From positions 1,159-34,204 of the forward strand of contig PMXB01000149.1 in NCBI GenBank assembly GCA_003165935.1: a stretch of 33,046 bases of DNA. The letters run 5' to 3'. The DNA is from Acidobacteriaceae bacterium (GTDB lineage Bacteria > Acidobacteriota > Terriglobia > Terriglobales > Acidobacteriaceae). The notes beneath the pieces were generated by a model that worked only from the letters and a program-made list of their open reading frames with translations, made no database searches and was not told the DNA's origin. Position 1 is the first letter of the stretch, and the number at the start of each line of letters is the position of its first letter. Position numbers and translations under genes: made by a program. Shown in pieces: positions 10,334 to 13,178 of this stretch.

Positions 10334-10503
10334 ATGCCGGTGGTGAAAGAAGAGAGATACTTCTACTGCCACAGAAGGACATGCGGGGACAGAAGGCCCT
10401 GCCGGAGGCACTTGCAGCGCGGAGCGGGGGCGAAGCCCTGAAACACAAGGCGCCGCGATGTGAAGGCACCGAGTCCGAACTCTTTTCGCTTGTTCCCCGG
10501 CAT
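10334..10503 (+). ncRNA. Y RNA-like unit A (divergent; no recognisable T-arm)
   Basis: ATGCCGG-T-GG (from 10334) pairs with CCCCGGCAT (ending 10503); internal GAGATACTTC matches the core of the other units. No TTCRANT arm found. Confidence 0.5.
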
Positions 10504-10535
10504 GGACTCTATGGGGCAATGCATTCTTCCACCTT

Positions 10536-10651
10536 GACCGGTGGCGTAGGTTACGGATCCTTCGGTCGCGAGTTCGAGTCTCGCCTGGCGGGGAACTGCC
10601 AGTAGCTCAGTGGGTAGAGCGAAAATCGCCGCAGCCGCTGGTACCCCGGTC
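10536..10651 (+). ncRNA. Y RNA (YrlA-like) unit B with permuted tRNA-like module
   Basis: Closing stem GACCGG-T-GG / CCCCGGTC; core GGCGTAGGTTACGGATCCTTCG; T-arm GCGAG-TTCGAGT-CTCGC (10568-10584); hairpin CTGGC-GGGGAACT-GCCAG (10585-10602); TA; D-arm GCTC-AGTGGGTA-GAGC (10605-10620). Confidence 0.85.
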
Positions 10652-10699
10652 ATCGTTTTCCTGGCGCGATTATGAATGTCGCGCCGCAACCTCAACGCG

Positions 10700-10860
10700 G
10701 CCGGTGGTGCAGGCAACAGTTACTTCGGGAGCGGGAGATGCGGGTTCGAATCCCGCCGCGTGTGACTGGCACGCGTCGTCTAATGGCAGGACATCCGCCT
10801 TCTTATGTGCCCATTCAAAAGGGTCTGCAAGAAAGATACTGTCGCCGCTTGTTCCCCGGC
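10700..10860 (+). ncRNA. Y RNA (YrlA-like) unit C with permuted tRNA-like module
   Basis: Closing stem GCCGG-T-GG / CCCCGGC; T-arm GCGGG-TTCGAAT-CCCGC (10740-10756); hairpin CGCGTG-TGACTGG-CACGCG (10757-10775); D-arm-like GTCTAATGGCAGGAC (10778-10792). Confidence 0.83.
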
Positions 10861-10911
10861 ATCGATTCACGGCACGCGCTTTGATTGGCGCGCCAAAAGC
10901 AAGTCCACCTC

Positions 10912-11042
10912 AGCCGGTGGTGTAGGTAACGGATACTTCGCCTGTTAAGCGGGAGACGCAGGTTCGAATCCTGCCCTGAGCGCGAGCCCGGGTGGTCTAG
11001 TGGCTAAGGACGCCTATGTTCCGTACCGATTGTTCCCCGGCT
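10912..11042 (+). ncRNA. Y RNA (YrlA-like) unit D with permuted tRNA-like module
   Basis: Closing stem AGCCGG-T-GG / CCCCGGCT; core TGTAGGTAACGGATACTTCG; T-arm GCAGG-TTCGAAT-CCTGC (10958-10974); hairpin CCTGAGC-GCGA-GCCCGGG (10975-10992); D-arm GTCTAGTGGCTAAGGAC (10995-11011). Confidence 0.85.
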
Positions 11043-11080
11043 AATAACCCTCCGGCGGGTCCGGATAGAAGAGCAGAACG

Positions 11081-11425
11081 ATGGGCAAACTGAACATCAA
11101 GAACGGCACGCCGGTGGGAGGAACTCACTTATGCCGGAGCTGCAGCTGGGGACAGTTAGTTGTGGGTTATCGCGAGTCTGACATGCTGGCGATTTGCACC
11201 AATACGAGCCCGAACCTGGTGCTTCCGTTCACGGTGTATGAATGCTCGCACTACGCAGACAAGCACAAGCCGGACTGGGAACAGATGAAGAATCTGGCCA
11301 TCAACATTCAACCGTTGCGTGTTTCAAAGAAGACGCGCGGATTCAGCGTCCCGGCGGCCAGCGTTTCCGCGAATGGGGCCGACGTAGAAGAAGAGGGTGA
11401 AGAGGAAGTTGCGCTCGCCCGCTGA
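11081..11425 (+). CDS. Small four-cysteine protein of unknown function encoded within the Y RNA array
   Basis: 114 aa ORF with CRSC, AICTN and YECSHY (four Cys, possible zinc site) and an acidic C-terminal tail; ATG follows a purine-rich AGAAGAG. Confidence 0.75.
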   Translation: MGKLNIKNGTPVGGTHLCRSCSWGQLVVGYRESDMLAICTNTSPNLVLPFTVYECSHYADKHKPDWEQMKNLAINIQPLRVSKKTRGFSVPAASVSANGADVEEEGEEEVALAR

Positions 11426-11452
11426 GATCAACCATCCGTCACTCACCATCTC

Positions 11453-11588
11453 CTGCCGGTGGCGCAGGACACGGATACTTCGTAGAGCGCCGCCTTTCAG
11501 GCGGAGGTCGCAGGTTCAAATCCTGCCGCAGCCTTCAGGCTGACGTGGCTCAGAGCATCACCTTCCGTGGCCGAATATTCCCCGGCAG
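11453..11588 (+). ncRNA. Y RNA (YrlA-like) unit E with permuted tRNA-like module including an anticodon-like arm
   Basis: Closing stem CTGCCGG-T-GG / CCCCGGCAG; core CGCAGGACACGGATACTTCG; arm CCGC-CTTTCAG-GCGG; T-arm GCAGG-TTCAAAT-CCTGC (11510-11526); hairpin CAGCC-TTCA-GGCTG (11529-11542). Confidence 0.83.
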
Positions 11589-11651
11589 AAGTTTTTCAAC
11601 GAAGCTGGACGAGATGAATTTCGTTCGATGACATCAACTGCAAAATCAACC

Positions 11652-11775
11652 TCCTGCCGGTGGCGCAGGGCACGGATACTTCGGAGAAACTTCGCACATA
11701 GCGGAGGAGCAGGTTCGACCCCTGCCGCCAAGCTTCGGCTTGGTGAATGCCGCGCCCGTCAATTCCCCGGCGGGA
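11652..11775 (+). ncRNA. Y RNA (YrlA-like) unit F, in the leader of rsr
   Basis: Closing stem TCCTGCCGG-T-GG / CCCCGGCGGGA; core CGCAGGGCACGGATACTTCG; T-arm GCAGG-TTCGACC-CCTGC (11709-11725); hairpin CGCCAAGC-TTCG-GCTTGGTG (11726-11745). No clear D-arm. Confidence 0.78.
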
Positions 11776-11810
11776 ATTCATTCTTGATTATTTCTGAAAG
11801 GAGGCGCACC

Positions 11811-13178
11811 ATGCGCCTGAACAAATTCACTCTGAAGCGCTTTACCCGCCCGCGCACCCACGAGGGAGCGCCGGCCAAGCGCATCACGCCGGAGCAGGCT
11901 CTGCGCCGCTCGGTCCTCTCGTGCATGCTGTGGGAGAACGAGTTCTACGAGGATGGCGTCCAGATCGCAGGACGCATCGGAGAACTGGTTCCCCAGGTTG
12001 AGGCAGAGAAGATTGCCGAGCTGGCCGTGGAGGCTCGCGAGAAGATGAAGCTTCGCCACGCGCCGCTGCTGCTGGTGCGCGAGATGGCTCGCCACGCAAC
12101 GCATCGCGCGGTGGTTGCCGAGACGCTGATCCGCGTGGTCCAGCGTGCTGACGAACTCTCTGAGTTTGTCGCCATCTACTGGGCGGGTGGACGTCAGCCG
12201 CTGTCAGCGCAGGTGAAGAAGGGGCTAGCTTCCGCATTCACCAAGTTTGACGAGTACGCGCTGGCCAAGTACGACCGCGCAGGAGCTGTTCGCCTGCGCG
12301 ACGTCCTGTTCCTATCTCACGCTCGCCCGGTCGACGAGGCACAGGCTGCGCTGTGGCGCCGTCTTGTGGACAACGAACTGGCTACGCCGGACACTTGGGA
12401 GGTTGCACTCTCTGAGGCGGGACGCGGCGAGAGCGCCGAGGGCAAGGCGGAGGCCAAGCGCGAAGTGTGGGAGCGTCTGCTGGCGGAGCGCAAGCTGGGG
12501 GCGCTGGCTCTTCTGCGCAACCTGCGCAACATGAAGGACGCGCAGGTGCAGGAGAAGCTTGTGCTCGATGGGATTGCCGCCGTGAGGACGGACCGGGTGT
12601 TGCCGTTTCGTTTTCTGGCTGCTGCGCGCAGCGCGCCGCAGTGGGAGGACGCACTAGAGCAGGCAATGTTCCGCTCACTCGAGCAGCGTGAAGGCTTTGG
12701 CCCGGTTCTGCGCGGACGGACGGTGCTGCTGGTGGACGTCTCCGGATCGATGGAGTCGCCCATCTCGTTTCGCTCGGAGATGCGCCGGACCGATGCAGCA
12801 TACGGTCTGGCGATCCTGCTGCGCGAGATCGCGGAGTCGGTGACGATCTTCACTTTCTCTGAGAAGGCAGTTCGCGTGCCGTCTCGCCGGGGAATGGCAC
12901 TGCGCGACGCGCTGGACAAGAGCCAGACCCACGGGGGAACCAACCTGGGGGCTTCGCTGGGGCAGGTGGAGGCCGAGATGCGCGAAGGGTACGAGCGCAT
13001 CGTGGTGATCACCGACGAGCAGTGCCACGACCGGGTTCCTTCGCCGCGCGGGGTTGGCTATGTGATCAACGTGGCTTCGGCCCAGAACGGTGTGGGATAC
13101 GGAGCGTGGAACCACATCGACGGCTGGTCAGAGGCGGTAATCGACTACATCGCCGAACTGGAGGCCGAGCGCGGATGA
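11811..13178 (+). CDS. rsr: Ro60 ortholog (Rsr), TROVE domain plus vWA domain
   Basis: TPEQALRRSVLSCMLWENEFYEDG, LRHAPLLLVREMARH, IYWAGGRQPLSAQVKKGLASAFTKFDEYALAKYDRAGAVRLRDVLFLSHARP (TROVE); TVLLVDVSGSMESPI (MIDAS DxSxS) and VITDEQ. AAAGGAGG Shine-Dalgarno upstream of ATG 11811. Confidence 0.93.
   Translation: MRLNKFTLKRFTRPRTHEGAPAKRITPEQALRRSVLSCMLWENEFYEDGVQIAGRIGELVPQVEAEKIAELAVEAREKMKLRHAPLLLVREMARHATHRAVVAETLIRVVQRADELSEFVAIYWAGGRQPLSAQVKKGLASAFTKFDEYALAKYDRAGAVRLRDVLFLSHARPVDEAQAALWRRLVDNELATPDTWEVALSEAGRGESAEGKAEAKREVWERLLAERKLGALALLRNLRNMKDAQVQEKLVLDGIAAVRTDRVLPFRFLAAARSAPQWEDALEQAMFRSLEQREGFGPVLRGRTVLLVDVSGSMESPISFRSEMRRTDAAYGLAILLREIAESVTIFTFSEKAVRVPSRRGMALRDALDKSQTHGGTNLGASLGQVEAEMREGYERIVVITDEQCHDRVPSPRGVGYVINVASAQNGVGYGAWNHIDGWSEAVIDYIAELEAERG

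What the first reader, a model, noticed from the sequence alone, without database searches (positions are those of the whole stretch)
10334..13178. Six-unit tandem array of Y RNA-like tRNA mimics upstream of a Ro60/Rsr gene
Seen: six non-coding units (A-F) share a closing helix with a bulged U (GCCGG-U-GG with CCCCGGC) and the core GGYGYAGGNNACGGATACTTCG. Units B-F each carry a perfect 5-bp/7-nt T-arm followed by a stem-loop that looks like a tRNA acceptor stem closed by a short loop; B, C and D then have a D-arm. Established: bacterial Rsr binds Y RNAs, and the YrlA class has a tRNA-like module. Inference: this is an expanded Y RNA family. One or two Y RNAs next to rsr is, to my recollection, more usual, so six diverged copies suggests specialised RNAs bound by one Ro60 protein.
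Basis: partly seen in the sequence, partly recalled or inferred. Interest (0 to 1): 0.93.

Follow-up and report, generated by a model that had tools for sequence, protein, structure and literature searches.

The report
Y RNAs hiding permuted tRNAs
Next to a bacterial Ro60 gene lies a row of six small-RNA genes that are Y RNAs; five carry parts of a tRNA in scrambled order, and one, like relatives in other bacteria and phages, carries a complete tRNA with a genuine anticodon loop that changes from species to species, which suggests bait for proteins that read tRNA anticodons.

Summary
Six units (A-F, 10335-11773) lie upstream of rsr (11811-13178) in an Acidobacteriaceae genome. A covariance model built from relatives finds exactly these six in the whole assembly. 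The closing helix, second stem, T-arm, acceptor hairpin and D-arm covary (0/500 shuffles reach the score). These are bacterial Y RNAs of the YrlA kind, but below Rfam's YrlA cut-off. Six is the upper end, not unique: related rsr loci usually hold 3-4, and Caulobacter phage CcrPW holds eight.

Unit D, and many homologues in bacteria and phages, also has an anticodon arm. Put back in normal order by computer, 45 of 46 such modules are called tRNA by ARAGORN with the expected anticodon (shuffled 0 of 230). There are 24 different triplets, U33 in 55/56 loops, and G37 appears only with G36 (one exception; p=7e-12). Unit E is a second topology, opened in the D-loop. The acceptor stem is closed by a short loop, so these cannot be charged. 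Best reading: Rsr-bound baits for tRNA-recognising proteins, perhaps anticodon nucleases. That last step is inference.

The parts
10335..10503 (+). Y RNA unit A: Ro-binding stem, no T-arm or other tRNA-like module (YrlB-like)
   Evidence: R1 38.6 bits; similar units in L035 and L065
10536..10652 (+). Y RNA unit B: canonical YrlA layout (T-arm 10568-10584, acceptor hairpin 10585-10602, D-arm 10605-10620), no anticodon arm
   Evidence: R1 83.6 bits; Rfam YrlA 43.9 bits, below cut-off 69; arms parsed
10699..10862 (+). Y RNA unit C: T-arm 10740-10756, acceptor hairpin 10757-10775, D-arm 10778-10792, long insertion after the D-arm
   Evidence: R1 81.5 bits; arms parsed
10912..11043 (+). Y RNA unit D: complete circularly permuted tRNA on a Ro-binding stem; reads as tRNA-Asn(GUU) when rotated
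   Evidence: R1 120.7 bits; ARAGORN on rotated module; covariation on 20 homologues
10937..10953 (+). anticodon arm of unit D: UUCGC [CUGUUAA] GCGGG, anticodon GUU at 10944-10946
   Evidence: stem covaries on 50 homologues
10958..10974 (+). T-arm of unit D
10975..10992 (+). acceptor-like hairpin of unit D, closed by GCGA (GNRA) tetraloop, no CCA
10995..11011 (+). D-arm of unit D (GTCT/GGAC)
11081..11425 (+). ORF of 114 aa, CxxC...C...C (zinc-ribbon-like), conserved between Y RNAs and rsr in Acidobacteriaceae; function unknown
   Evidence: no Pfam or NCBIfam match, only a marginal PHROG match
11454..11588 (+). Y RNA unit E: complete tRNA opened in the D-loop; D-stem GAGC 11485-11488 with GCTC 11548-11551, anticodon-stem hairpin 11490-11504, T-arm 11510-11526, acceptor hairpin 11527-11545; reads as tRNA-Glu(UUC) when rotated
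   Evidence: R1 78.9 bits
11655..11773 (+). Y RNA unit F: T-arm 11709-11725 and UUCG-capped acceptor hairpin 11726-11745, no D-arm
   Evidence: R1 52.9 bits
11811..13178 (+). rsr, Ro60-like protein (TROVE plus vWA), 455 aa; the longer start at 11628 would run through unit F and is unlikely
   Evidence: Pfam PF05731, PF25045, PF13519; GAAAGGAGG ribosome-binding site before the 11811 ATG

Best explanation
Identity (shown by computation): a six-gene family of Y RNAs upstream of, and probably co-expressed with, one Ro60-like protein. Each RNA has the same Ro-binding stem formed by its two ends and a different module on top. In B-F the module is a circularly permuted tRNA, or part of one, whose acceptor ends are sealed by a hairpin loop. 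In D it is a whole tRNA cloverleaf opened between D-arm and anticodon arm. In E it is a whole cloverleaf opened in the D-loop. Mechanism (inferred): Rsr holds the stem; the module is presented as an uncharged, end-sealed tRNA mimic to proteins that recognise tRNA. Modules with anticodon arms are baits or competitive inhibitors for proteins that read the anticodon loop, most likely anticodon nucleases and similar tRNA-cutting toxins, or else tether such proteins to Rsr. The variety of anticodons within an array and the turnover between relatives would follow from a changing set of attackers. I put the identity at about 0.95, 'tRNA-protein tether or bait' at about 0.7, and 'anticodon-nuclease bait' at about 0.35; the number given below is for the whole chain.
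For: Array and Rsr. Covariation: 96.5% of cells paired, 22 of 36 pairs changed on both sides, 0/500 shuffles. Anticodon stem alone on 50 homologues: 96.4% paired, innermost pair CG 30, AU 16, GC 3. Rotation test: 45 of 46 modules called tRNA with the predicted anticodon; shuffled 0/230; rotation off by 10, 20 or 35 nt gives 3, 0 and 0. Loop rules: U33 55/56; G37 in 13/13 loops with G36 and in 1/43 without it, Fisher p=7e-12, a coupling the covariance model cannot impose. 22 of 33 distinct loops are identical to a real tRNA loop, against 10.4 on average (at most 18 in 2000) with columns shuffled. Triplet turnover: 38% triplet identity between homologues against 72% elsewhere. In two related Xanthomonas phages the unit next to rsr has UGU in one and GUU in the other with the same stem. 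Sealed acceptor hairpins: GNRA or UUCG in 38 of 100 modules. Precedents: YrlA proposed as competitive inhibitor of an anticodon nuclease in Salmonella (PMC7790460); phage tRNAs under selection by anticodon nucleases in their anticodon loops (PMC10264068).
Against: No expression, binding or nuclease data. In Salmonella YrlA is not cut by the anticodon nuclease (PMC7790460), though it lacks an anticodon arm. In this window only D has a canonical anticodon loop; A, B, C and F do not, and E has a shortened one, so anticodon reading cannot be the task of every unit. No RtcB was found in the genome (assembly 75% complete). No toxin or nuclease gene is evident beside the array, though I did not search for one systematically.
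Confidence: 0.45

Rival explanations
1. Classical role only: the module tethers Rsr to PNPase (RYPER) or gates the Rsr ring for structured RNA decay, and the anticodon arm is an ornament that stabilises the tRNA-like fold.
For: RYPER is the one worked-out bacterial role of Rsr with Y RNA (PMC8394870 and PMC8058203). T-arm, acceptor hairpin and D-arm are the shared parts. Many units lack an anticodon arm.
Against: A structural ornament would not need U33 or the G36-G37 rule, nor 24 different triplets in otherwise constant surroundings.
Confidence: 0.25
2. The anticodon arm serves recognition by tRNA-modifying enzymes (for example TrmD at G36-G37 or MiaA at A36-A37), either to mature the Y RNA or to sequester the enzymes.
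For: G37 appears only after G36, the TrmD pattern (the enzyme rule is from general knowledge). YrlA is known to be modified by tRNA enzymes such as DusA and TruB (PMC8394870).
Against: One enzyme would favour one loop; the triplets range over some 20 tRNA identities.
Confidence: 0.2
3. They are functional permuted tRNA genes, cut and joined to make chargeable tRNAs, as in some red algae.
For: Rotated modules look like good tRNAs; one phage record annotates a unit as tRNA-Thr.
Against: The acceptor strands are joined by short loops without CCA in nearly all units; the Ro-binding stem is as conserved as the tRNA part; the genome has ordinary tRNAs.
Confidence: 0.03
4. Leader or attenuator structures of the rsr mRNA rather than separate RNAs.
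For: All units lie in sense orientation upstream of rsr and no sigma-70 promoter was found in front of any.
Against: Each unit has its own closed 5'/3' stem and tRNA-like module, and the array can be separated from rsr by an ORF or by more than 2 kb.
Confidence: 0.05

Closest known systems
YrlA-type bacterial Y RNA (Rfam RF02553; Salmonella YrlA)
   Same: Ro-binding stem from both ends; permuted T-arm, acceptor hairpin, D-arm; gene next to rsr
   Different: D class adds an anticodon arm with real, varying anticodon loops; E class is opened in the D-loop; arrays of several diverged copies; none tested reaches the Rfam cut-off
YrlB-type Y RNA
   Same: Unit A and many short units have the stem without a tRNA-like module
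   Different: Not compared with Salmonella YrlB itself; the distal part of A shows no tRNA-like arms
Phage-encoded tRNA arrays that counter anticodon nucleases (PMC10264068)
   Same: Phage-borne sets of anticodon loops under apparent turnover
   Different: Here the tRNA is permuted, end-sealed and tied to a Ro60-binding stem, so it cannot be charged
Circularly permuted tRNA genes (red algae) and permuted tmRNA
   Same: Order of tRNA parts is rotated
   Different: No CCA or processing sites; the junction carries a Ro-binding stem

Membership tests
Bacterial Y RNAs (functional class) | encoded next to a Ro60/rsr gene | tested here: met
   Rsr by Pfam; upstream units in 49 of 51 rsr loci that held any match
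Bacterial Y RNAs (functional class) | long stem formed by 5' and 3' ends with conserved bulge and Ro-binding core | tested here: met
   helices 1 and 2 covary, 99.4% and 94.8% of cells paired
Bacterial Y RNAs (functional class) | bound by Rsr in the cell | not testable with these tools
   needs co-purification or CLIP
YrlA | tRNA-like module ordered T-arm, acceptor hairpin, D-arm | tested here: met
   B, C, D; not A or F; E has a different opening point
YrlA | score above the Rfam RF02553 gathering cut-off (69 bits) | tested here: not met
   best is B with 43.9 bits; none in 15 related loci, so not filed as Rfam YrlA
YrlA | tethers PNPase | not testable with these tools
   biochemistry needed
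Permuted tRNA genes | acceptor ends free after processing, with discriminator and CCA | tested here: not met
   hairpin loops are mostly short, GNRA or UUCG in 38 of 100; CCA in the loop in only 4 of 100

The most novel reading that the evidence does not exclude
Rsr with its Y RNA array is a changeable library of anticodon baits: bacteria and phages use Ro60-bound, unchargeable permuted tRNAs to neutralise or sense anticodon nucleases, with anticodons turning over as in an arms race.
Probability: 0.3. Interest if true: 0.93.

Novelty: new variant of a known kind. Interest (0 to 1): 0.8.

Why it matters
What bacterial Y RNAs and their tRNA mimicry are for is an open question. A class that displays whole tRNAs with authentic anticodon loops, many different ones, in both bacteria and phages, gives that question a direct test: which anticodon-reading protein does each one catch? 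It also shows a Y RNA class that Rfam's YrlA model misses and that is annotated as tRNA in at least one phage record.

Tried and rejected
Functional permuted tRNA genes: rejected on the sealed acceptor loops. RNA-repair (rtc) operon context: no RtcB in the assembly. A CCACC/GGTGG alternative hairpin before units B and D: not general (17 of 137 units by a loose motif count). Sigma-70 promoters before units: none found. AlphaFold model of the 114-aa ORF: pLDDT 55, unusable, so no fold search was made. ARAGORN on the window in native order: no tRNA; with an artificial ACCA end, 13 of 46 native-order units are called, so the rotation test was judged by the predicted anticodon and by off-register rotations. 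Chen 2014, Sim and Wolin 2018 and Wang 2018 are not held, so I could not check whether they mention an anticodon arm; a review that cites them lists only D, T and acceptor arms.

Full report
Setting. The window lies in a 4.76-Mb Acidobacteriaceae assembly (75% complete). The gene at 11811-13178 encodes a Ro60-like protein with TROVE and vWA_Ro60 domains. Homologues occur in 38 of 150 genomes of the family and in named relatives such as Granulicella mallensis.

The observation. Rfam finds only unit B as full-length YrlA, 43.9 bits against a cut-off of 69, a fragment of C below it, and part of unit D as a tRNA; ARAGORN finds nothing. I collected units from relatives by motif and T-arm search, aligned 20 of them and tested a structure written by hand. 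96.5% of cells form a standard pair, 22 of 36 pairs change on both sides, and none of 500 shuffles comes near; sliding the partners by one column drops pairing to about 50%. RNAalifold on its own gives nearly the same structure. The model R1 finds exactly the six units in the whole genome. Single-sequence folding is only mildly better than shuffled sequence (z -0.8 to -2.4), so the case rests on homologues.

How unusual is six? In 51 rsr loci the number of upstream units is 0-7: 0 in 2 loci, 1 in 5, 2 in 6, 3 in 16, 4 in 14, 5 in 4, 6 in 3, 7 in 1. Caulobacter phage CcrPW has eight hits directly upstream of its rsr. The window is at the high end of a common arrangement.

In unit D the stretch before the T-arm is a 5-bp stem with a 7-nt loop, UUCGC[CUGUUAA]GCGGG, in the place of a tRNA anticodon arm, followed by a 4-5 nt variable loop. 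The same arm occurs in Acidobacteria, Alphaproteobacteria and, in a slightly different form, Kordia, in IMG/VR viral contigs and in isolated phages. In 50 aligned homologues the stem is paired in 96.4% of cells and its innermost pair is CG 30, AU 16, GC 3.

Is the loop a real anticodon loop? I took 56 loops, chosen only by the stem. U33 is present in 55. There are 24 triplets. G37 follows G36 in 13 of 13 and occurs in only 1 of 43 other loops (Fisher p=7e-12; on 33 distinct loops p=6e-7). This is the rule of real tRNAs, and a covariance model scores loop columns independently, so it was not selected for. 22 of 33 distinct loops equal a loop found in real tRNAs of the fetched sequences; with columns shuffled the mean is 10.4 and the maximum of 2000 is 18. 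These tests treat units as independent, which related sequences are not; the spread over phyla and phages and the test on distinct loops make up for this only in part.

Rotation test. Joining acceptor 5' strand, D-arm, anticodon arm, variable loop, T-arm and acceptor 3' strand in normal order, ARAGORN of 46 modules tRNA, each with the expected anticodon: Asn, Met, Ser, Asp, Thr, Val, Pro, Ile, Phe, Cys, Lys, Gly, Gln, Leu, His and others. Shuffled modules give 0 of 230; rotations off by 10, 20 and 35 nt give 3, 0 and 0 of 46; native-order units with an artificial ACCA tail give 13 of 46. Window unit D becomes tRNA-Asn(GUU).

Second topology. In E and about eight homologues, including viral contig L221 and an alphaproteobacterium (L045), GGUAGAGC lies before the anticodon stem and UAGCUCAG after the acceptor hairpin, so the D-stem closes across the module and the Ro-binding stem takes the place of the D-loop. 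The cross D-stem GAGC/GCTC is kept in 8 of 9 aligned sequences but hardly varies, so it has conservation rather than covariation behind it. Rotated, E is called tRNA-Glu(UUC). Its anticodon loop is shortened, as in most of this class.

Turnover. Between homologues of the D class the triplet agrees at 38% of positions against 72% for the rest. Two related Xanthomonas phages (10KY502B and Olaya) carry, in the unit next to rsr, CUUGUAA and CUGUUAA on the same stem. Arrays with two such units usually show two different anticodons (L059 Lys and Asn; L221 Thr and Gly; L229 Leu and Trp).

Not a chargeable tRNA. The acceptor strands are joined by short loops, GNRA in 25 and UUCG in 13 of 100, with CCA in only four.

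Mechanism. Shown: homology, structure, anticodon-loop identity, phage distribution. Established elsewhere: Rsr-Y RNA tethers PNPase in Deinococcus (PMC8394870, PMC8058203), and the Salmonella tRNA-like domain was suggested to be a competitive inhibitor of an anticodon nuclease (PMC7790460). Inferred: Rsr presents the module as bait or tether for tRNA-recognising proteins, and the varied anticodons point to proteins that read the anticodon loop. Rivals are listed separately.

Novelty. A review of YrlA lists D, T and acceptor arms only. The primary papers are not held, so prior mention of an anticodon arm cannot be excluded. None of 15 loci, most of them rich in these RNAs, reaches the Rfam YrlA cut-off, and one unit in phage 10KY502B is annotated as tRNA-Thr. 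I rate it a new variant of a known kind.

Noticed in passing
window 11081-11425: 114-aa ORF with CxxC...C...C, conserved between the Y RNAs and rsr across 29 Acidobacteriaceae loci, sometimes in two copies (L068); no family match; possibly a partner of Rsr.
   Followed up: partly
L307 3722-3789 (Xanthomonas phage 10KY502B, OQ622092.1): Annotated as tRNA-Thr, but it is part of a Y RNA unit (3718-3850) upstream of an rsr gene annotated as hypothetical protein.
   Followed up: yes
L313 1730-2921 (Caulobacter phage CcrPW, MH588545.1): Eight Y RNA hits in a row upstream of rsr in a 308-kb phage genome.
   Followed up: partly
L315 (Rhizobium phage RHph_TM39): Y RNA units lie in the same stretch as ordinary tRNA genes, next to rsr.
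   Followed up: no
L314 6779-7034 (Brevundimonas phage Kabachok): A permuted tmRNA (RF04321) near the Y RNA array and rsr.
   Followed up: no
G000 contigs C107 and C264: Clusters of atypical tRNA genes (Thr, Gly, Gln, Gln, Asn; Pro, Thr, Ile) that look like phage or plasmid tRNA arrays in the same assembly.
   Followed up: no
L052 4543-4614, L066 5596-5667, L061 4469-4538 and others: Many minimal units of about 70 nt that keep only the Ro-binding stem.
   Followed up: no
91 of 50,697 phage records: Rsr homologues are found in phages of Bacteroides (crAss-like), Rhizobium, Streptomyces, Gordonia, Vibrio, Brevundimonas, Caulobacter and a haloarchaeal virus.
   Followed up: partly
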